Assembly (NCBI RefSeq): GCF_000165425.1
Contig: NW_001798963.1
Span: forward strand, 186,001 to 250,000
DNA: 64,000 bases
Reading direction: 5' to 3'
Source of the DNA: Paramecium tetraurelia
Lineage: Eukaryota; Ciliophora; Oligohymenophorea; Peniculida; Parameciidae
This document shows, in pieces, positions 23,775 to 40,292 of the stretch (position 1 is the stretch's first letter; every line of letters starts with the position of its first letter). The position numbers were made by a program, and so were the translations under genes. Under the pieces are notes generated by a model. That model was not told the origin of the DNA. It ran no database searches and was given only the letters and a program-made list of their open reading frames with translations.

Positions 23775-26422
23775 TCATTAAGGCAATGCTCCTCCAATTA
23801 ACTGTTGGGCTCCATTGAACAAGTTTATAGGGTTATTACCATCAGTGAAGATATAACCTTATAATCCCAATCCCTTGAGCAACTCAGCTTGCATTTCTGG
23901 TCCTGCATTGGCCATGGCAATAAGGGTATCTTGTCCTAAGGCTTCGATGATTTGCTCAAACTTATTGGATTCGATTGTAGCTAGTTCCTTGGCTCTTCTG
24001 ATTTCAAGTTCAGCCTTCTCTTGTTCATACTTGATGGTTTGATCTTGTTCCTTTTGCTTTTGTTTCAAAGCAGCTTCCTTTTCAATCTTATTGGCTCTTG
24101 CTCTCAATTGAGCCAATTCATATTCCTTTTGTGCTTTGATTTGTTCAGCCTTGGCAATGGCTTCAGCTTCTGCAATGGCAGATCCTTATTAAGTAACTTC
24201 TTGTGATTTGTTTTCCATTTCAAGCAATTTCTGTTTAGCAGCTTCAGCTTTGAGATCGTCTTCAATTCTCAATTAATCTAATTCACCCTAAGCTTATTGT
24301 TCTTGTTATTCAGCAACGTGTTAAGCAGCCTATTCCTATTTCTTGGTTGAAATTTCAATAGCCAAAGAAACAGATCTTTGAAGACTCTATCTAGTTTGGT
24401 TGTCCACTGGTTCGACTGTTTTGATATCTACATTAGTAATGACTAGATTATTCTTCACCATCAGATATTCCTTTCTGATTTTGCCATTTTCATCAGTACC
24501 GAAGATGGCTGTTCTGATGAGTTTGGCAGAGGTCTTATGGAATTTGTCGAAAACAACAGAGGCAACAGCAGCTCTGACTTTAGAAGCCATTTGATTACAG
24601 AGATCTCCAATGAAATCTTTGACTGCAAAGATCTGGGAGGCTGATTCAATGTTATTTTCATCTACCTTAAATCTCCAATTGTAAGCTAAGAGTAATTTCA
24701 AGACAGCATGATCGGATGTTTCAAACAGTGATTTCATCAGTGGAGAATTCTGGACCCATCATAACATGTAATGTATTGACAACACCAGGAGTCTTTGGTG
24801 TTTTACCAGACAAAGATAATTGAGTAAATACTTCATCTGGTTCTAAACATACCAAAGCAGGACCAAATACAATTCTTGTCTTCTTGGTCTTGTAATCATA
24901 GACCTACACTGATGTATTGAAGGGAGCTCTGTAACTAACAACCTTCCATTTGTCTCTCTTTCCACCTGTATGGAAATATTGAGATGACAACAATTATTCA
25001 ACGTTGTTTGGCAATTCCATAGACCATAATTCCTCATGGGATTTCAACATATAGGATTCACCAAAGACAGTTCTCACTTAACCTGTTCTTGTGTCTCTGA
25101 CATACACACCTTCATTCTTGTCAAGAGGAATTCTCTCTCTCTTCTCAATCACTTCCACTACAATGGGAGGTGTGTAGATGCATGGTCCATGAATCATCCA
25201 TTTATTACCTGGTTCATAGTCCACTTCAACTTCTTCAAATTAATTGTTCTTAGCCAACTTCTTCTCAGTGAATTTGCATTTCTCTTTTGCTCTCAAAAGC
25301 AATGCTTGATCCTCTGATAAGATGTAGGAATCTTGAATTCCATATTGCAAAGATTCATTGGGTCTAAGGAAAAAGCTTCTTGGACCTTCAACAAGCACTT
25401 TGGATCCAAATTTGTTTCTTTGAGTTTCAAAATCAAATGGATTCTCTATTATACAATATTGTCTTGGATCTAAAATGGTCAAATTTATCACAGTGACCAA
25501 TTCTTCAAACACATCCACTATGTGTGCAGATGTCTGTTCAGATGTTATCAAATATTCCTCTCCTGCCTTTCTCTCAATTGCTATTCATATTTACACATAT
25601 AAATTACAATAAACATCTTTGAAAGTCTGAATTGCTTTTAAATGCAATGCCTTGCGATTGTCCAAAATCTCAGCATCAATTATCTTGACAAACTCCTCAT
25701 AAACTTAAGGAAGATAGTATCCAGGTGTTCTAATCAACCACTGCTCTCCTGATTTTCTGACAACTCCATTAGAATCATTTTCTTCTTATTTTGCTCTGAT
25801 AAGAATTGCTTAATTCTCTTTAATTAGAATGGAATCGATTTATCCCAAGATCTTTTCCTCAATTCTTGGATAATAAGTGGCTGGACCTTTGAATAGGTAC
25901 TAGTCACCTGCCAAACTGTATTGTTGTTATTAAAATATGATACATATTATTTTCTCCCTATTTAAAGTTACGTTGTGCCTCTATTTTCAAGGCACTTCCT
26001 TCCTTTACAACTGTGAGCTTTTTAGGCTATTGAAGAAGGTTTTCTTTTGGGAAAAGGGGGAATGGAGTGCTGTACTGCTCGAAGAAACGAATCTCTCGTT
26101 CACCATGCAGAACGACAAATTGACTAAACATTAGAGGAATCTCATTACCCATATCGATCCTTAGTAGGCTAACCATCTTTATCCTTCACAATTGGGTTTT
26201 CAATGATGCAATAGTGTTGTTTTGGGAGCACAACCATTTTTTGAGGTTGTTAACCAGACGTAACCTTTGTTGCTATTTCATTATTACTTATTCATGGTCT
26301 TGACGAATAAAAGTTTACGGGCCTATCTCAACTCTAGTCACATTCGAATTGCAATCCAAGACATGTATGAATTAATATGGTAAAATTTTGTATGTGCTTG
26401 TCTATCCTTTGGCTTATGACAT
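23775..26422 (-). CDS. MVP: Major vault protein
   Basis: Structural protein of the vault ribonucleoprotein shell. ATG 26422 gives the start MSQAKGQTSTYKILPYQFIH, then VLDCNSNVTRVEIGPQTFIR, which aligns with the human N-terminus (YIHVLDQNSNVSRVEVGP). Successive vault repeats follow (YCIIENP, LAGDQYLFKGPATYYPR, EQWLIRTPGYYLP, GIQDSYILSEDQALLLRA, KVVSYRAPFNTSVQVYDYK). The shoulder/SPFH-like region is clear (NWRFKVDENN, VRAAVASVVFDKFHKTSA, VDIKTVEPVDNQTR). A cap coiled coil comes next, then the end LLKGLGL with INLFN. Length of about 800 residues is normal. At least four introns; one near 26275 ends in AAG. Identity is very secure; the cellular role of vaults is unclear. Confidence 0.95.
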
Positions 26423-29663: not shown

Positions 29664-32600
29664 TCAACAATTTCTCAAATTGACAAATCCCCTTCCTAAT
29701 TCGACCAACTCTTAAAATGTACCCTATTCTACTATGGTTCCATTTTCCATATAGTAAATTCGATCATAATCCTTTAATGCTTCCAATCTATGTGAGATTG
29801 TTATTATTGTCTTTCCACACTCTCTCAAATATTATTAAATGAAATCTTCCACAGATTAATCTACGCTTGCAGTCGCTTCATCTAAACAAATGATATCTGG
29901 ATTTTATAACACAACTCTTGAAAATGAAATCAACTGTCTCATCCCCTAAGAAATTTAATTTGACTCTATCTATGTCTCACTATCCATTGGAATGTATTTT
30001 GAAATAAGATCCTAATCAGAGCAATCCAAATTCTCACTCAAAGTTCCATCAAATACAAATCCTGATTAAGGAATAACACCCACTTTATTTCTCCATTAAA
30101 AAAGCTATTATGATGGCACCGACATTTCTCCATAAGTTTGCTCATATAATTGAAATAAAACTGCCAAAATTGAAGATTTGCCACTTCCTGTCCTCCCACA
30201 AAATGCTATCCTCTTTCCTTATTCAATCTCTAAGTTTATTCCTTTTAATGCTAACTACCCATTAAGGTACTATAATTGAACATCCTTAAACTTTATCTCT
30301 TTGGAATAATTCAAGTATTTATTTTGTTCCATTGAATTATTACAATATTTGTTTACTCTTTCATATGATACCAGTTCTTGTTCACAAGTAGTTAACGATA
30401 ATGTTAAATCCTTAAATATACTTATCTTAGTCAAAGAGTAATATAATAACAATTATAAGGTTGACTTACTGATAGACAACTCATAGTATAAACTTAAAGC
30501 AGTGAACAATAGAATAAAAAATACGATGAATCCTGCAATTAGTTGCAATCTTATCTATAACCACAATGCAATTACTCTACTACACCATTAAACTTAAGTG
30601 GCTTGTGTTAGTTTATTTAGAAATATACCTTAAAATATATTATATTCATAAATACTTCTAAATTCTTCCCGTTTATTGAAGGCATTTATAGTTAAAATTC
30701 CTTTGAATTACTCAAAAATGATGGTTGCCAAATTTGAATTAGTCTCTGCATCCAATCTACGTAATGACAGACTGGTTGGTCTGTATAGTTATTATAATCT
30801 ATAAAATAGTAGTGCTGACACTATTACAGGTAGCATCAATTGATACTAAAGAACAACCAACACAATTAAGGTTCCGATACAATTAAAAACGTTATTGCAT
30901 AATATATTCAACTCAAATGGAAATCTGTTATCTATAACATTTTGATCATCTGAGAATCGTATTAATATCTGTCCACTATCCTCAGCATCAAAAAAAGAAC
31001 AAGTTGCATGCATCACATGGCTCAATAAATTACTGAATATAGATTTGGCTTAAACTAAATTACCATAAGCAAACGACACAGCTCTTGATAATTTGATGAT
31101 TATATCTAAAACTAATAATACAAATAAGGTCAATTCAAAAGAATTACTAAAGATAAATATTGGATTCTAATTAATATAGGAGTTTAGCCATAAATCATAG
31201 ACATTAAAAGACATTTACATTAAAGCTAATGAAATCAATATCCATAAAAAGTTGTTTAACCCTAGTGCTTGTAAATAGCAGGAGATTGAGTTTTAAGCCT
31301 TCTTGATTTCAGGTTTTTCATTATTTTCTCTTTCCTGCTACACTGTTTCTTATTAGACAATATTGCCACTCTACTCTTTCAAATCAAAGGTTATATCCTG
31401 CAAATCTTGGAAATACATATCAATTTTCTGTTAATCATAAATGACCTAACCCTCCTGAATAATTATAATTTAATCTGCATATTTTTTGTATCTCTGCAAA
31501 TGATTATCATTTAATGCAAATATTATCGGTTTCTTTAACTTCAATAAATTATAAAAAATGCTATCTCCTACTAGTGGATCTAAACTACTAAAGATATCAT
31601 CCATTAGATATATATTACTATAATTGTACAAAGCTCTACAGATACACAATCTCTATTTTTATCCTCCTGATAGTTTAGATCCATCAGGGCCAACATCAAA
31701 TAAGTCCTTCTCTGGATATTGTTTAATATCATCAATTAAATTACTCAAAATCAAGCACTATTGGTATAACTCAGCGTCATAATTTGATTACATTAAAATG
31801 TTATCCCTAATTGTCCCTTTAAAAAGCCAACATTATTGCGAAACATATGAAAATTCTTAATTTACTTAAAAAAATCCAGAATACGGCTTCATTTAATTCA
31901 AAAGCGAGAGTAGAAATGAAGATTTTCCTGATCCCACTTTTCCTCCAATGAATACTATATTATCTATCTTGAAGTGAGGAATTTTCAAGGTGAATGCGGC
32001 ATCAAAATCCCATTTTAGCTCTGCTAAGTTAATTTGAATGCCTTCTTCAAACTAATTTTTAACTTTTCGAGTTATCACAAATGAATTAATTCTTTTAAAC
32101 GAAGTCTTTGCTTATAGCATCCCAGCCAAAGTCCAAGGTAATGCGTTTAAAGGATTTGTTAATAATGAAAATACATAAATGATGGTAAATACATTATCTA
32201 GATCGTTGTTTTGGTGAAATATATGTATACAGTAATTGAAGATATCAGAAGTATTAGTAATTGACCAAAAGATGACACAGAGAGAATCCAGCCATTTTGA
32301 ACCTGCAATAACTGCGAATTCTTTATCTCTGAGATTCATAATTTTGGATTCCCATTTGTTCTCCCATTTCAGAAATTTGATAGATTTAGGATTAGTAATA
32401 AACTCTTTTAAAGCTTTCATTCTTTAATCTTTGTAGATCAGACCTGATGAATAATATTGGCCTATTTTGTTTGCAATTGCAAAATTGATAAGCATTAAAA
32501 TGATGGCTATAGTAAATCCTACAAAAACTGCCTCTTGTATTTGCAAATATAAAATTGTCATGCCTATCATCAATTTTAGAATTAAAGACCAAAATTCATG

Positions 32601-33179
32601 AAAACTTATAAAATAATTCATGATTGTATTGACATCAATATTGATTAGGTTCATGAGATCTAAATTAGATTAGGCTTCAATGGAATTATACAATGTTTAG
32701 ATCAAGAATGATTTACATCTGAACTCTAAAATCTTGATTTAATAATTGTATTATGTATCAGTGAGGGTAGACACTAAGGTTGAACACAAGACTGCACCTG
32801 AGTAGACTACAAAGTCGTTATTTGATTAATCTACCGCAGTAGTCAAGTAATTGATTAAAATTGGAGTAGTGAATAAAAAAATAACCGAGAATAATTTTAG
32901 CAATCCAATCCATATAAAATTCTGCAAAAACATTTTCTACAAGGTCTTCAAAATGGGTTCATTGTTCTCCAATCCTCCATCATATTAACCAATTAGTTCA
33001 TTGGGTAGGTAATTAGAATCACTAAGAGTGTTTTCTACTTCCTCCAAAGTAATAATTCTCTCCTTCGATTATATGATTTTGCGGATTTAAGTGAAGAATA
33101 AACTACTCAGATTTTATTTGTAATTTTTAGACATATAGGACTGGATCTCTTCATTCAAATTTTGATGTTGAACTTTCAT
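29664..33179 (-). CDS. ABC transporter, ABCC (MRP) subfamily
   Basis: Full transporter of about 1,150 residues, TMD1-NBD1-TMD2-NBD2, without a TMD0. ATG 33179 starts a short cytosolic N-terminus. NBD1: Walker A GGKVGSGKSSF, signature LSGGQKQRLCICRAL, Walker B IYLMDDIFSSLDP, where Asp replaces the catalytic Glu as is usual for ABCC NBD1. NBD2: Walker A CGRTGSGKSSIL, signature-like SQGMRQLISFSR and Walker B IICLDEATASVDQ, then the switch His in TISHRLE. TMD2 contains the intracellular coupling stretch FFDAEDSGQILIRFSDD. It probably exports organic anions or conjugates; the substrate is unknown. Few introns are needed. The start is 79 bases from the stop of the upstream cyclase gene. Confidence 0.9.
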
Positions 33180-33258
33180 GAATAAAATATTCCTGTTGAT
33201 TTATAAGAATGATAATTTTAAAACAAAAGAATTGTAAAACATAATAGACTTAATATAT

Positions 33259-36009
33259 TCATTTTTCTGTTAATTCTCTATACCCCTTCCAATCTTAAGG
33301 AGCTTTGAAATTAGTTTCTCCCATTACATTAAAAAGTGTACTGATTGGACCATCATTCGGTTTAAGTTACTTAGCTTTTTCAAACCACATATGGGCCTCT
33401 TTCCAATTTCCCAACAGGTAGCCTTAGAATCCTTGACCAAATTGATGCTAGATTTAGTAGTATGTATAACATTACCAAGAATTCTGGATTGAAATTTTTA
33501 GTTATAAGTCCAAGATCCTTGTTTCTTTTCATATACAATTCTCCATTAAAATCACCAGACTCTAATTATTAAAGAAAGATTTGCTTTTTCTCATACATCA
33601 CTTATTGCTTCTCTTCCTAAGGGTAATCCTACTTACTAAGAGGCAAATCATCTCCCTCCATCTCAACTGTGAACAAACCAACAGGCTTAACACTTCCCTT
33701 CACTGTAACTTTATCGATCTATCTTGTATATTTCTTGATTTCATTGGAGAAATATTGGTGCAATTCACTTGAGATCAAGACTGCCACTCCATATTATTTA
33801 GTTGCAGCTTCTAAACGGGAGGCCATGTTAACATTTGGACTTAGATAGGAGGCATCAATTTTGAATTCTGATCCAATGGCCCCTTCTATACCCCATCCTA
33901 TATGCAATCCGAATCCCATCTTGACTTTATATCCTGGCAAACGTTGACTTAATCTCTCATCATTTCTATATTCTAATATTTTGGGTTCTCTATTGATCTT
34001 AGCATATATCTTCATGAAAGCAATTAGAGCACAATCAGCTAATTAATTTATGAACACCAAGTTGGACCTTGTATAATATAATGATATTTACCATTTGATT
34101 TCATTTCCATCCTCATACCATTAAGAATCATTGATTTTCCAAACTAATAAGAATGCATCTCCTATGTTTTTATTGGCTGATCCTTGATATCGATCCACCA
34201 TTGAATGAACAATCTCAGCTATATTATTGACAAACAACATCACATCTTTTTGCAAGACCTCAGTGGCATCAGTGAAATTACGAATATCACAAAATCCATA
34301 AATTGCCCATTTACGTTTACCTGGTAACATAGGATCCACATCTCCTGATGATGCCATATTAGTTCCTATAATAGCAGAACCTGCATCACCAAATCCTAAT
34401 GCCAACAAGGCCCCTATTTTGATGATAGCATTTTCTATCTAAGTGGTTTCCTTTTGGGTTCCTTCAGATTCTAATTTCATCTCCTTAGCCAATTAAGGAT
34501 TCTTAGCTATTAAATTGACTTTCACTATCATCCTATCTATTGGTTTCAATGCAACATTACTAGCATCATTGGAAAATGCAATTGCTCCAAATAACAATAC
34601 AGCACTCACAAATAAGGTATTAACAATATTGATAATTGAATTCTTAGACTCAACATCAGAATTATCTGAGACAAAAAGAATGACAGGATCACCGATGTAA
34701 TCCAATCCCACTAATACAGGATCTACTAATTCAAAATAATAGCTTTTCGAACTTTCTCTTAAAAATTAATATGAAGGGGTTTCGTAATTCTCTATCTCAG
34801 TAAATGGGTTAGTGATATATCCTACAGGTGTGTCAAATGATTTATGCTAATCGATCACAAAATTAATTGTCTAATTGATCTCACTTAATTTAGTATTCGG
34901 AATTTCAGCCACAACTCTGAAATATGAAGCTGCATAAGCCAAACTATATGAGGGTTCAAAATAGTAATCAGAACTAAATAAAGGCATGATTAAAAGCAAT
35001 ATAATGACAAGGATGATGACTTTCTTCGTTGTGGAATCTGATAATCTCTTGCTCACTCTTGATTCTTTTATTTCTTTTGCTTTGATTTACGATGGTTCTT
35101 TCATAGACTGTCTACGATTTGGTAAGCTCTTTGGAATCGAATTCTCAATTTAGAGTTATTTTGCAACCATATTTTAATTTTCTCGATTTTCTTAACTATT
35201 CGCATTATCTTCTCCTTCTGGTTTATGACTCTCAATACTGCCCCGTTATTCAGTGTGATTCTCTTTTTTATTTAGATTCTCTTATTCAATTGCTATATTA
35301 TTAATGTTCTCATAAACAGATGGATAAATTGTTGCTCTACTTTTTTTAATGGTCTAAGTTCGGATTGGTTACCTTTTGAATGCTTATTCCTACGAATAAC
35401 TAGCTGCCTTATACAACTTAACTATTCTAATTAATCTAACAAGACGAACAACTCTAATTGCTTTTGAACTAGTCTTAGAGGCTTTGTTGGCTTGGGACAA
35501 TTAGGAGGCGGATTTTGCAGCTACGGAACCTCTAAAATAAGATTAGGGGGGGAAATAGTTACTGTAAACCAACTGCAATATTGAACTAGGTGATATCCAA
35601 AATTTAAGAAACTGTTGATATTATATCCAGCCAGAAAAAGAATGAATTAAAATAGTCAGTTCTAACCATGCTTGCAATGACAATTTCAATTGAAAATATT
35701 ATCTACCATAGATGATGATTTTACCATGCATATTATAGTGATTACATCGAATCCATCATCAGCTCTTTTATCAAAAGCAATAATTCTAATGTCATCGCCA
35801 AATAGAGCATAGATAGTTAACAGATTTACGAATATTTAAAACCAACTACTATCCAAAATACTCGTTAAGAGTGGAAACTTATCACTGAATTCATAATTTT
35901 TTCATTACATTTCTTAATCTTGACCAAACACGTCGATATCATCAGCGTTGCTCTCTTCTGAAATTACAGATTAGTTATCAACTTCTGGATTTACTTGCGG
36001 TTCATTCAT
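33259..36009 (-). CDS. Voltage-sensor-containing class III adenylate cyclase
   Basis: Makes cAMP from ATP. From ATG 36009: an acidic N-terminus, S1 (FQIFVNLLTIYALFGDDIRI), S2, S3 (NSFFFWLDIISTVSQILDI) and a textbook S4 with Arg/Lys every third residue (AIRVVRLVRLIRIVKLYKAA). About 110 charged residues then follow with no S5, pore or GYG. Next come a membrane helix (VIILVIILLLIMPLF), an outer domain, a second helix (TLFVSAVLLFGAIAF) and a HAMP-like turn. The cyclase domain has metal Asp in YGFCDIRNFTD and NIGDAFLLVW, and the transition-state Asn/Arg in SPNVNMASRLEA. The C-terminus is TPR-like (GNWKEAHMWFEKAKQLKPND). Related to ciliate and Plasmodium channel-cyclases. Confidence 0.88.
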
Positions 36010-37376: not shown

Positions 37377-40292
37377 ATGAATTAGTAATTGCTGTCTGAG
37401 AAATTGCAATTGAGTGGATTGAAAATTGAATCATGTGGATTTATTAGGACATTTGATTATCTTAGGAATTTGAAGTTGTAAGATGAAATTCGGATTGAGG
37501 ATATTGGTGCACATAATATCTATAAATTTAGTGTTAGAATATTAAATCAGTAATATATCATAAGGAGAAGGGTGAAGGATTTCTAGTAGTTGGAATCAAC
37601 GACAAATCCTGATCCGCTTTTTTTATTCAAAAAAAGAGAAGTAATAAAAGAAAGTATGGAAGATTAACCCAAAGAGAAATAATAAATTTTGTTCAATTTT
37701 TTGAAGTCATTTCTGCAGAGTGAAAATTTGAATGAGCTAACTCAAGAGGTTTTAAAGTTTTTTGAGATTTCTGAAGTGGAGTATGGCGATTTCAAAAAGT
37801 TCAAGGAATGCACCTTAAAAAAGAGAGCAGGAGGAAGATTCTCCGAAAGTAGATGCACCAGATGCGGAACCCTCTGGGGAAGATGGTCAAAAAGGTACGT
37901 ATTCCAACATTAAAATTAGATATTTCTATATATCGAATAATGGAGTGATGTATTGTAAGGGTCCCTTCGGACAAAGAGCATAGATGAGAGAATAATTGGT
38001 GTTTGATTACAATTTTCGAATGAAATATGGTAAGGCAGGAACTGGTTACAATCGAGGTATCAAATTAGAGTTCGCGACAAGACATCTATTGCTTGTTGCC
38101 CCTGATTACTTCACTTATACAGAATTCTTAACAGCATTAAACCAAGCATAATAGTGCTGTCCTTACATGCAGCTCCATAGATTCAATTCCTTTGCCCCCA
38201 TAAAGGATAGTCATTGCAAATGGTACATCGACGGAGAGGGGTATTTCAGCGATGTGATGACTGCCTTGTTGAGTGCCAAGGAATATGTATATATTACTGA
38301 TTGGTGGATGAGTCCAGATCTCTACTTAAGGAGACCCATAGCCATAGATTAAAATGATTAAATAAATTAGGATTCCAGATTGGATAGGATCCTCAAGAAG
38401 ATTGCAGATAGGGGAGTGGCCGTCTACATCTTAATGTATTTAGAGCCCACCATAGCATTAAAGCATGATTCAAATCACACTAAACTTTTCCTTGAAAGAC
38501 TGTCTCAAAATATCATAGTCTTAAGACATCCCTCACCTATGCCTTAATTATGGAGTCATCATGAGAAGATTGTGGTTGTAGATGGATCAGTGGGATTTAT
38601 GGGAGGCCTCGATTTGTGTTTTGGCAGAATGGACACTCAATAGCATTTACTCACTGATTTGGATGTGAGGAAACAGTTCTGGCCAGGGATTGATTATGCA
38701 AATAATAGAATGAAGGATTTTGAGAGTGTTCACAAAAGTGGAGAGAGCTAAATCAACAGGAGTGATCCTAGGATGCCTTGGCATGATATTGCAGTCAAAG
38801 TAAGTGGATAATCAGTTAGTGATTTAGTCAGACATTTCGAATAGTATTGGAATCACGTTATGATTAGTCAGAATTTTTAAAAGAGAATACAACATTAATT
38901 ATAAGGAAATGCTAAAAATCCAAGCAATTATTATAAAATCTAAGATGCTCAATTGCAAACTACCCATGATACTTTCTTCTAAAAATATAAGAATGAAATC
39001 AGGGAGGAGTATCAATGTTAGGTTCCAGAAGAAGAGTTCAAAGATAATTTGGAGAAGGCGATTACAAAATCTTATAATCCAAAACAAAGGTTGTCAGCCA
39101 TTTTCCCCAATAAACAATAATGTAATAAGGACTTTATGGAAATTCTTGAGAAAATTCATGGATAAAAGTAAGAAGATGAGGAAGATTTCGAAGAGAGTAT
39201 TGTGCCGATAAATAAACAATTTCGATCAAGCATTATGATTCAACCTAAATTGTAGATTGTCTACGAGAAGGGAGAATGTCAGACTTAAATTTTGAGATCA
39301 GCATCAAATTGGTCAATTGGTTGCTCTCCTGCCAACACTGAATTCTCTATTCAAATTGCTTATACTCATCTTATATCAGAAGCTCAAAATTTCATTTACA
39401 TTGAAAATCAATTCTTCATTAGTGCTGTCGATGACAATCACAAGACCTTAGAAAATAAAGTAGCTTTGGCTCTAGTTCAGAGAATCAAAAAGGCAGCCCT
39501 AAAAAAAGAGAAATTCAAAGTGATAGTATTCTTGCCTTTATTACCTGGCTTTGCTGGAGAAATTGACAAGGATTCTGCAGTTTTGAAGGTCTAATTGCAT
39601 TGGGAATATTAGACAATTAGTAGAGGAGGGAACTCCATTCTTGAGACACTTAAAAAGGATGCCAACATTTAAGATCCTAGTGAATATATTGAATTTTATT
39701 CATTGAGAACACACACCAAGATTTTGGATGTTCCGAAAACTGAATAAATTTATATTCATTCTAAACTTATGATTGTTGATGATGAATATGCTCTTATCGG
39801 ATCTGCAAATATCAATGATCGAAGTTTGGTTGGAAATCGAGATTCAGAAATTGCAATTGTCATTTATGATAATAAAAAAAAGAGATCCATGATGGGCGGT
39901 GAAGTTGTGGGAAGGTCTATATTTGCTTAGGAGTTAAGGACTTCCCTCTACATGGAACATTTCGGATTAACATATGAATAAGTCATAGATCCTTTGAGTC
40001 CAGAATTAGAACAACTAATTAGATATAATACTCGTAGAAACACAATTATATATAGATAAGTATTTGCATGTTACCCTGATGATTATATTAAATCATTGAA
40101 TGACTATTAAACTGTAAATGAATATTTAATTTTTAGTTTAAATCTTAAGGAGACCTTTCCAAATATGATTAATTATCTTAATAAATTGTAGGTCATGCCG
40201 TTGAATTCCCCTTAGAATTTTTATGCAAAGAGGATTTGACAATTAAAATCTTGAGTATGGAAATTATCGTTCCAGAAATCAATTTTACATGA
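37377..40292 (+). CDS. Phospholipase D with N-terminal PX/PH-like regions
   Basis: Hydrolyses phosphatidylcholine to phosphatidic acid and choline at membranes. ATG 37377. Residues about 40-130 resemble a PX domain ([20 protein letters not shown]). A PH-like region follows ([20 protein letters not shown]) after a 25-nt intron near 37895. The catalytic half has both HKD motifs: [19 protein letters not shown] at about residue 395 and [19 protein letters not shown] at about 800, plus ENQFF and GNRDSEIA. The C-terminus [13 protein letters not shown] matches the conserved end of eukaryotic PLD once a 23-nt intron near 40117 is removed. Length of about 950 residues is normal for PLD1/2 or plant PLD-zeta types. 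Confidence 0.92.

What the first reader, a model, noticed from the sequence alone, without database searches (positions are those of the whole stretch)
33259..36009. Voltage-sensor cyclase with no visible pore
The S4 helix has Arg/Lys at every third position and the cyclase domain keeps its metal and transition-state residues. Between S4 and the next membrane helix there are only about 110 charged residues, with no S5, pore loop or GYG. Published ciliate cyclases of this type are described, as I recall, with a full potassium-channel-like module. A pore-less version would act like a voltage-sensing phosphatase, turning membrane potential directly into cAMP.
Basis: partly seen in the sequence, partly recalled or inferred. 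Interest (0 to 1): 0.75.

Follow-up and report, generated by a model that had tools for sequence, protein, structure and literature searches.

The report
Pore-less voltage-sensor adenylyl cyclase, also bacterial
A ciliate gene joins a membrane-voltage sensor to an enzyme that makes the messenger cAMP, with no recognisable ion pore between them, and the same fusion turns up in three Poribacteria genomes, which suggests that enzymes called 'channel-cyclases' may sense voltage without being channels.

Summary
On the minus strand, 36009-33259, five exons (ciliate code, introns of 22-31 nt) encode 881 aa: a Kv-like S1-S4 voltage sensor (VSD), a 126-aa hydrophilic linker, TM5, an ectodomain of about 107 aa, TM6, a class III adenylyl cyclase and a TPR-like tail. 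No S5-pore-S6 was found between S4 and TM5.

Two results change the interpretation. (1) The kind is known. Phytophthora proteins with VSD and cyclase but no pore helix were reported in 2025 as a stramenopile/alveolate family, and the older alveolate 'channel-cyclases' are described as having a GXG after TM6. This protein has GFG there. Its phenylalanine falls at the position of the ordinary class III cyclase-transducing element (75 of 80 viral cyclases have a Phe 34 residues before the metal Asp; here 35), so it is probably not a K+ filter. (2) Three of 84 Poribacteria genomes encode the same architecture in one intronless frame, in an ABC-importer gene cluster, with a 37-38-aa linker. A missing exon is thus very unlikely, and the family reaches bacteria.

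Best reading: a homodimeric cyclase controlled by membrane potential through a pore-less VSD, with a second, ectodomain input. Coupling and polarity are inferred, not shown.

The parts
33259..36009 (-). whole gene, 5 exons (36009-35909, 35884-35725, 35702-35563, 35531-33476, 33447-33259), 881 aa, ciliate code (TAA/TAG = Gln, TGA stop)
   Evidence: frames
35788..35859 (-). S1 (residues 43-66), with Y59-A60-L61-x-G63-x-D65 invariant in four relatives
   Evidence: hydropathy; invariance
35667..35745 (-). S2 (residues 81-99, interrupted by the 22-nt intron), motif F90-S-I-E93
   Evidence: alignment to Kv1.2
35589..35654 (-). S3 (residues 104-125), SFFFWLD with D113 invariant in four relatives
35405..35464 (-). 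S4 (residues 157-176), seven Arg/Lys at i+3
   Evidence: Pfam Ion_trans
35027..35404 (-). hydrophilic S4-TM5 linker (residues 177-302), 31% charged; no S5, pore loop or S6
   Evidence: no PDB hit for residues 178-540 at E up to 10
34964..35026 (-). TM5 (residues 303-323)
   Evidence: hydropathy
34643..34963 (-). ectodomain (residues 324-430), poorly conserved (20% identity to the bacterial relative in a pairwise alignment)
34577..34642 (-). TM6 (residues 431-452)
34355..34426 (-). segment with GFG (residues 503-526; GFG 513-515 at 34388-34396) at the position of the class III cyclase-transducing element
33653..34324 (-). class III adenylyl cyclase domain (residues 537-760): D549, D592 (metal), K588/S695 (adenine), N702/R706 (transition state); roles recalled
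33262..33444 (-). TPR-like C-terminal tail (residues 821-881) ending APQDWKGYRELTEK, 47% identical to the bacterial relative
   Evidence: (designed TPRs, best E 7e-4)

Best explanation
It is a membrane adenylyl cyclase controlled by membrane potential, without an ion pore. Shown by sequence: a complete Kv-type voltage sensor (S2 F-x-x-E, S3 Asp, S4 with seven basic residues at i+3), no recognisable pore module, a receptor-like TM5-ectodomain-TM6 unit, a segment at the cyclase-transducing-element position, and one catalytic domain carrying the full class III residue set, which would have to act as a homodimer. Inferred: S4 moves with voltage; the movement reaches the TM5/TM6 bundle or the cyclase dimer by side-to-side contact rather than through a stiff linker (the linker is polar and of very variable length); TM6 and the transducing element change the dimer geometry and so cAMP output; the ectodomain is a second input. 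If it behaves like the Paramecium activity, hyperpolarisation raises cAMP. The GFG after TM6 belongs to the cyclase's transducing element and is not a potassium filter.
For: Architecture and residues. Same architecture in three Poribacteria in single intronless frames: G001:C57 (49% over window residues 428-757, VSD E 5.9e-10), G026:C51 (88% to G001) and G025:C111 (52% and 50% to G001 in two stretches) (alignments), with a 37-38-aa linker. The four cyclase domains form one group with support 100/100 against 27 other class III rows (13 further rows were dropped before the tree). Conservation is highest where the enzyme works: cyclase 53%, GFG segment 39%, VSD 31%, ectodomain 20%, linker mostly unalignable (38 of 126 residues aligned) (against G001). 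GFG as transducing element: F514 is an invariant column in 33 rows, of which 31 are viral cyclases; 75 of 80 viral cyclases carry F-x-x-Y-[LVIM]-x-[PA] with F exactly 34 residues before the metal Asp, the window 35. The AlphaFold2 model of residues 430-765 (mean pLDDT 78.0, pTM 0.65) has GFG inside a helix, at low confidence there (about 49), ahead of a confidently modelled cyclase best matched by OaPAC, bPAC, CyaB and CyaC. Literature: hyperpolarisation raises cAMP in Paramecium, and the sixteen P. tetraurelia AC genes are said to share one architecture (PMC4588038 passages); VSD-cyclases without pore helix in Phytophthora, one found mainly on a flagellum (PMC12223298, section 15 read).
Against: No functional data. 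S4-TM5 linker length (37-38 vs 126 aa) and net charge (-7 to -9 vs +5) are not conserved, against a fixed S4-to-enzyme lever. S4 is weaker in the bacterial members (longest i+3 runs 5, 5 and 4). Pfam Ion_trans falls below its cut-off in two of three (19.9 and 22.6 against 25; 25.6 in G025) and Guanylate_cyc is reported only for G025, not for G001 or G026 at the E-values used. The bacterial proteins have a GTG or GAG inside TM6, and G001 two more GxG before it, none of which the window protein shares. The purified Paramecium cyclase is reported to carry a K+ conductance (Schultz 1992, known here only through citing papers). A Shaker-like S4 usually activates on depolarisation (general knowledge), whereas the Paramecium response is to hyperpolarisation. 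The GFG segment resembles the bacterial element in position and one or two residues only; one alignment, with four readable cyclases of the phylum of G130, set GFG against a different, downstream LG[DE] stretch. The 80 viral cyclases include near-relatives, so 75 of 80 is not 75 independent observations.
Confidence: 0.65

Rival explanations
1. It is a true potassium channel-cyclase as published for Paramecium, Tetrahymena and Plasmodium: TM5, TM6 and the GXG after TM6 form an unusual pore, and K+ flow or voltage through it drives the cyclase.
For: Citing papers report a K+ conductance of the purified Paramecium enzyme and a GXG after TMD6. The window protein has GFG after TM6 and the segment is hydrophobic (1.56 over 503-521).
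Against: The Phe of GFG falls at a generic class III cyclase position (75 of 80 viral cyclases); the segment is 58-62 residues past TM6 in all four family members and modelled as helix, though at low confidence. No canonical filter motif, and no GxG between S4 and TM6, in the window protein; residues 178-540 have no PDB sequence match at E up to 10.
Confidence: 0.12
2. The VSD is not a working voltage sensor here but a membrane anchor, targeting or dimerisation module, and the cyclase is regulated by the ectodomain, bicarbonate or Ca2+.
For: Variable linker; weaker S4 in bacteria; ectodomain present in all four; Ser at position 695 resembles class IIIb sites (alignment, assignment recalled), and Plasmodium AC-alpha and AC-beta are described as class IIIB, similar to the bicarbonate-regulated mammalian sAC (PMC3383692 passages).
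Against: F90/E93, D113 and R160/R163 are invariant across ciliate and bacteria that are only about 31% identical in the VSD; the window S4 keeps seven charges.
Confidence: 0.15
3. The VSD itself conducts (protons or cations), as in Hv1, so the protein is a VSD-type channel coupled to a cyclase; this could explain a conductance in purified enzyme without an S5-S6 pore.
For: D65 near the outer end of S1 is invariant in all four, reminiscent of the Hv1 selectivity aspartate (recalled); the Paramecium conductance is described as relatively non-selective (PMC3283738 passages).
Against: The match to Hv1 was not tested by alignment; the solved chains that the window VSD matched at E up to 1 were all Kv1.2 or Shaker (12 of 12).
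Confidence: 0.06
4. The pore was lost by an assembly error or lies in an unrecognised exon.
For: No reads or RNA-seq could be examined.
Against: Exon 4 is one open frame from S4 through the cyclase; no filter pattern in the region; three bacterial genes without introns show the same layout.
Confidence: 0.02

Closest known systems
PPTG_13136 / PPTG_13761 of Phytophthora parasitica (VSD plus guanylate/adenylate cyclase, no pore helix; PMC12223298, section 15 read)
   Same: N-terminal Ion_trans/VSD, C-terminal Guanylate_cyc, pore helix missing, membrane protein; [quoted passage not shown]
   Different: Direct sequence comparison could not be made. Here three Poribacteria also have the architecture. 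The section read does not discuss the GFG element.
Alveolate 'ion channel/cyclase fusions' (Paramecium and Tetrahymena ACs, Plasmodium AC-alpha; Weber 2004, not held, known through citing papers)
   Same: Six TM helices, one C-terminal class IIIB-type cyclase domain, GXG after TM6, ciliate host.
   Different: Published reading is a K+ channel; here the GXG is read as part of the cyclase-transducing element. Sequences of those proteins were not available to align.
Voltage-sensing phosphatase (Ci-VSP)
   Same: Pore-less VSD tied to an enzyme.
   Different: Different enzyme; here two further TM helices and an ectodomain separate the VSD from the catalytic domain, and there is no short direct linker (comparison from general knowledge).
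Bacterial class III adenylyl cyclases CyaB, CyaC, OaPAC, bPAC
   Same: Catalytic fold and residues; a TPR-like tail with a P..W.G motif is also seen in 3 of 4 readable cyclases of the phylum of G130.
   Different: Other sensors; no VSD-cyclase was found outside Poribacteria in the sets searched, which are not a census.

Membership tests
Class III adenylyl cyclase | Two metal-binding Asp, adenine-selecting Lys plus Asp/Thr/Ser, transition-state Asn and Arg (roles recalled) | tested here: met
   D549, D592, K588, S695, N702, R706; invariant in four relatives; Pfam 2.2e-10; fold match to CyaB/CyaC/OaPAC. Substrate (ATP rather than GTP) is inferred
Voltage-sensor domain (Kv/Ion_trans type) | S1-S4 with basic residues at i+3 in S4, S2 F-x-x-E and S3 Asp | tested here: met
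Voltage-gated K+ channel | S5-P-loop-S6 with TxGYG-like filter following S4 | tested here: not met
   Ion_trans match stops at position 110 of 241; no filter pattern; no PDB hit for 178-540
Alveolate channel/cyclase fusion (AC-alpha type) | Six TM helices, one class IIIB catalytic domain, GXG after TMD6 | tested here: met
   TM count from hydropathy; GFG 513-515 about 62 residues after TM6; definition from PMC3283738 and PMC3383692 passages
Alveolate channel/cyclase fusion (AC-alpha type) | Sequence homology to the Paramecium/Tetrahymena/Plasmodium proteins | not testable with these tools
   no eukaryote collection; Weber 2004 not held
Alveolate channel/cyclase fusion (AC-alpha type) | K+ conductance | not testable with these tools
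   needs electrophysiology
Stramenopile/alveolate pore-less VSD-cyclase (PMC12223298) | Ion_trans N-terminal half, Guanylate_cyc C-terminal, no pore helix | tested here: met
Stramenopile/alveolate pore-less VSD-cyclase (PMC12223298) | Sequence homology to PPTG_13136 | not testable with these tools
   sequence not available here
Voltage-sensing phosphatase | PTEN-like phosphatase domain joined to the VSD | tested here: not met
   the only catalytic family in the Pfam scan is the cyclase

The most novel reading that the evidence does not exclude
The protist 'channel-cyclases' are not channels: the GXG after TM6 taken as a selectivity filter is part of the cyclase's own transducing element, and these proteins are voltage-sensor-gated receptor cyclases. 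The family is not confined to protists: Candidatus Poribacteria carry it inside an ABC-importer gene cluster. As far as the searches show, no bacterial enzyme (as against channel) built on a voltage sensor has been reported; this points to gene transfer between bacteria and protists or to a bacterial origin.
Probability: 0.5. Interest if true: 0.85.

Novelty: new member of a known kind. Interest (0 to 1): 0.62.

Why it matters
Voltage control of cAMP in Paramecium has been attributed since 1992 to a K+ channel built into the cyclase (as citing papers tell it). If the protein has no pore, voltage acts on the enzyme directly, and the cited filter motif is a misreading that can be tested by changing three residues. 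Intronless bacterial homologues (open frames of 780, 793 and 877 aa; linker of 37-38 aa) may be easier to express and study, and are natural templates for voltage-to-cAMP tools. A voltage-sensor enzyme in bacteria would be a new way to couple membrane potential to a second messenger.

Tried and rejected
Own-genome search for paralogues: no genome is held and no file could be laid. IMG/VR scans for the family found none; a GFG-motif scan gave seven matches, none in a cyclase by its translation. Plasmid and phage tblastn gave only matches under 60% identity; the listed ones begin near the catalytic domain, two of them somewhat upstream, and none includes the GFG segment. The first structure prediction (residues 135-819, two rows) failed, pLDDT 31, and is not used. 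PDB and NCBIfam searches gave nothing for linker, ectodomain or TM5/TM6 (NCBIfam's one listed family lies far below its cut-off and in the VSD). The four-row MAFFT local alignment misplaces the window's TM5 because of the linker; the two-row alignment places it against the bacterial TM5.

A wider look for VSD-cyclases outside Poribacteria found none: 386 relatives of G001, Poribacteria among them (164 have some match, only G001, G026 and G025 match the VSD columns among the listed rows; the list was cut and at most two candidates a genome were scored), 386 genomes of the phylum of G130 (9 matched at 1e-20, none of the ten listed places reaches the VSD), 44 and 2 further genomes, with no match at 1e-25. 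These empty answers are not a census: the genome contigs pattern would itself miss two of the three Poribacteria sequences. In the tree 13 rows were dropped because my motif cut failed on them, six end branches were flagged as long, and the branch to the VSD-cyclases is long (4.04). In one search two of six rows (L058, L062) were read in a wrong frame and carry no weight.

Direction of gene transfer was considered and left open: no eukaryotic relative other than the window gene could be fetched.

Full report
What is there. The window is ciliate nuclear DNA read with code 6 (TAA and TAG as Gln; 26 and 9 of them inside this gene, one TGA as its stop). The gene runs on the minus strand from ATG 36009 to a stop ending at 33259, with four introns of 24, 22, 31 and 28 nt. 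The short introns suggest Paramecium or a relative (general knowledge; the organism was not established). The protein has 881 residues.

Voltage sensor. Pfam Ion_trans matches residues 47-175 at 9e-9, but only profile positions 2-110 of 241, the S1-S4 half. S4 holds seven basic residues at exact spacing of three; 3 of 20,000 shuffles reach seven or more. The solved chains that the VSD alone matches at E up to 1 are Kv1.2 and Shaker, over S2-S4 (12 sequences, best E 0.0096); the four-row family profile finds Nav1.5 and Nav1.1 instead (0.018, 0.055). F90, E93 and D113, the gating-charge transfer residues by analogy with Kv channels (recalled), are invariant in the four relatives aligned.

No pore. 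Between S4 (ends 176) and TM5 (starts 303) lie 126 residues, 31% charged, without GxG, and none of the filter patterns I scanned for occurs in 34880-35540 on either strand. The best 19-residue hydropathy means in the minus frames of 35050-35535 are 1.19, 0.56 and 0.96; the 1.19 is in a frame the gene does not use. Residues 178-540 match nothing in the PDB by sequence at E up to 10. After TM5 comes an ectodomain of about 107 residues, then TM6, then about 62 residues on, GFG (513-515), then the cyclase.

The cyclase. The class III residues are present. The AlphaFold2 model of residues 430-765, from 33 rows, has mean pLDDT 78.0, with 150 of 336 residues at 90 or more, and matches OaPAC, bPAC, CyaB and CyaC. 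One complete site set per chain implies a homodimer (inference). The tail is TPR-like, and its P..W.G motif also occurs in 3 of 4 readable cyclases of the phylum of G130.

Bacterial relatives. A DNA pattern for YLSP[NDHY]VNMA and a few bases more, scanned over a collection of one genome for each of 84,980 prokaryote species, gave one hit: a Candidatus Poribacteria MAG. The full frame encodes the whole architecture: window residues 428-757 at 49%, the VSD at 28% and E 5.9e-10, the tail at 44%. The 177-kb contig looks bacterial: sampled stretches hold ORFs that read like translation, transcription and tRNA-modification genes (my reading of the translations) and an ABC importer (Pfam). Of 84 genomes of the phylum, 10 have some match and 3 the full protein: G001, G026 (88%) and G025 (52% and 50% in two stretches). 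In all three the gene sits between a solute-binding protein gene and two permease-like genes, with an ABC ATPase beyond (ORFs; Pfam, where the ATPase of G001 and the second permease of G026 were not scanned and are my reading). Three copies, one of them well diverged, in one gene context make contamination or misassembly very unlikely. Start codons were not determined; lengths (793, 780, 877 aa) are open frames. Linkers are 37-38 aa. Weak points: Ion_trans is under its cut-off in G001 and G026, and Guanylate_cyc is reported only for G025, although the cyclase residues are all there. A tree of 31 cyclase domains puts the window and the three bacterial proteins on one side of a branch with support 100/100.

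The GFG. A review says that the alveolate 'channel-cyclases' carry their GXG after TMD6, an architecture 'radically different' from canonical K+ channels (PMC3283738 passages). The only GxG between S4 and the catalytic domain of the window protein is GFG 513-515. In 75 of 80 an F-x-x-Y-[LVIM]-x-[PA] motif lies upstream with its F exactly 34 residues before the metal aspartate; the other five did not match my pattern; in the window the F is 35 before. In an alignment of the window, L016 and 31 of these 80, the column of F514 is invariant, and an alignment of L016 with two plasmid, one phage and one other bacterial cyclase sets the GFG segment against the same Y/F-[LVM]-x-P stretch. Against this, an alignment with four readable cyclases of the phylum of G130 set GFG against a downstream LG[DE]. 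The place is that of the cyclase-transducing element, described as positionally conserved ahead of the catalytic domain with an SxL/MP centre in mammalian enzymes (PMC9552081 passages). The model shows a helix there, at low confidence. So the GFG is most likely a family-specific form of that element; this is an argument from position, not proof, and I could not see the Paramecium or Plasmodium sequences themselves.

What it probably does. Hyperpolarised Paramecium makes cAMP and swims faster, and the sixteen P. tetraurelia adenylyl cyclase genes are said to have one architecture (PMC4588038 passages). The simplest account is that voltage acts on the cyclase through the VSD. The link from VSD to TM5/TM6 is not a conserved lever, so contact between bundles is more likely. 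Each functional step is inferred.

Novelty. [quoted passage not shown] Searches for 'Poribacteria' with 'adenylate cyclase', for six phrases of the type 'voltage-sensing adenylyl cyclase' and for VSD with bacterial cyclase terms gave two papers each; none of the six listings looks like a report of a bacterial VSD-cyclase (I read passages of two of them, and only listings of the others). The library holds open-licence PMC papers only. The bacterial members and the reading of the GXG are the parts that appear new.

Noticed in passing
L023:7206-9587, L047:8381-10723, L046:6325-8958 (minus): Three Poribacteria carry a VSD-cyclase between the solute-binding protein and permease genes of an ABC importer (MalK-like ATPase domains in G025 and G026), suggesting that membrane potential or cAMP is tied to uptake of a solute.
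   Followed up: partly
   Followed up: no
window 23775-25551 minus: Major vault protein (shoulder and repeat domains, Pfam 4.8e-43 and 4.1e-28), split over two frames.
   Followed up: no
window 29664-33440 minus: ABC transporter gene (two membrane regions and two ATPase domains) directly downstream of the cyclase on the same strand; its long open frame overlaps the cyclase end, so the real start probably lies below 33259.
   Followed up: no
window 37732-40239 plus: Phospholipase D-like ORF upstream of the cyclase on the other strand.
   Followed up: no
window 35859-35788 minus (S1): Asp65 near the outer end of S1 is invariant in the four VSD-cyclases, reminiscent of the Hv1 selectivity aspartate (recalled); could permit a VSD conductance.
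   Followed up: no
window 33262-33444 minus: C-terminal P..W.G....T.K-like tail shared with 3 of 4 readable cyclases of the phylum of G130 and matched in G339 and G254, a possible conserved module of class III cyclases.
   Followed up: partly
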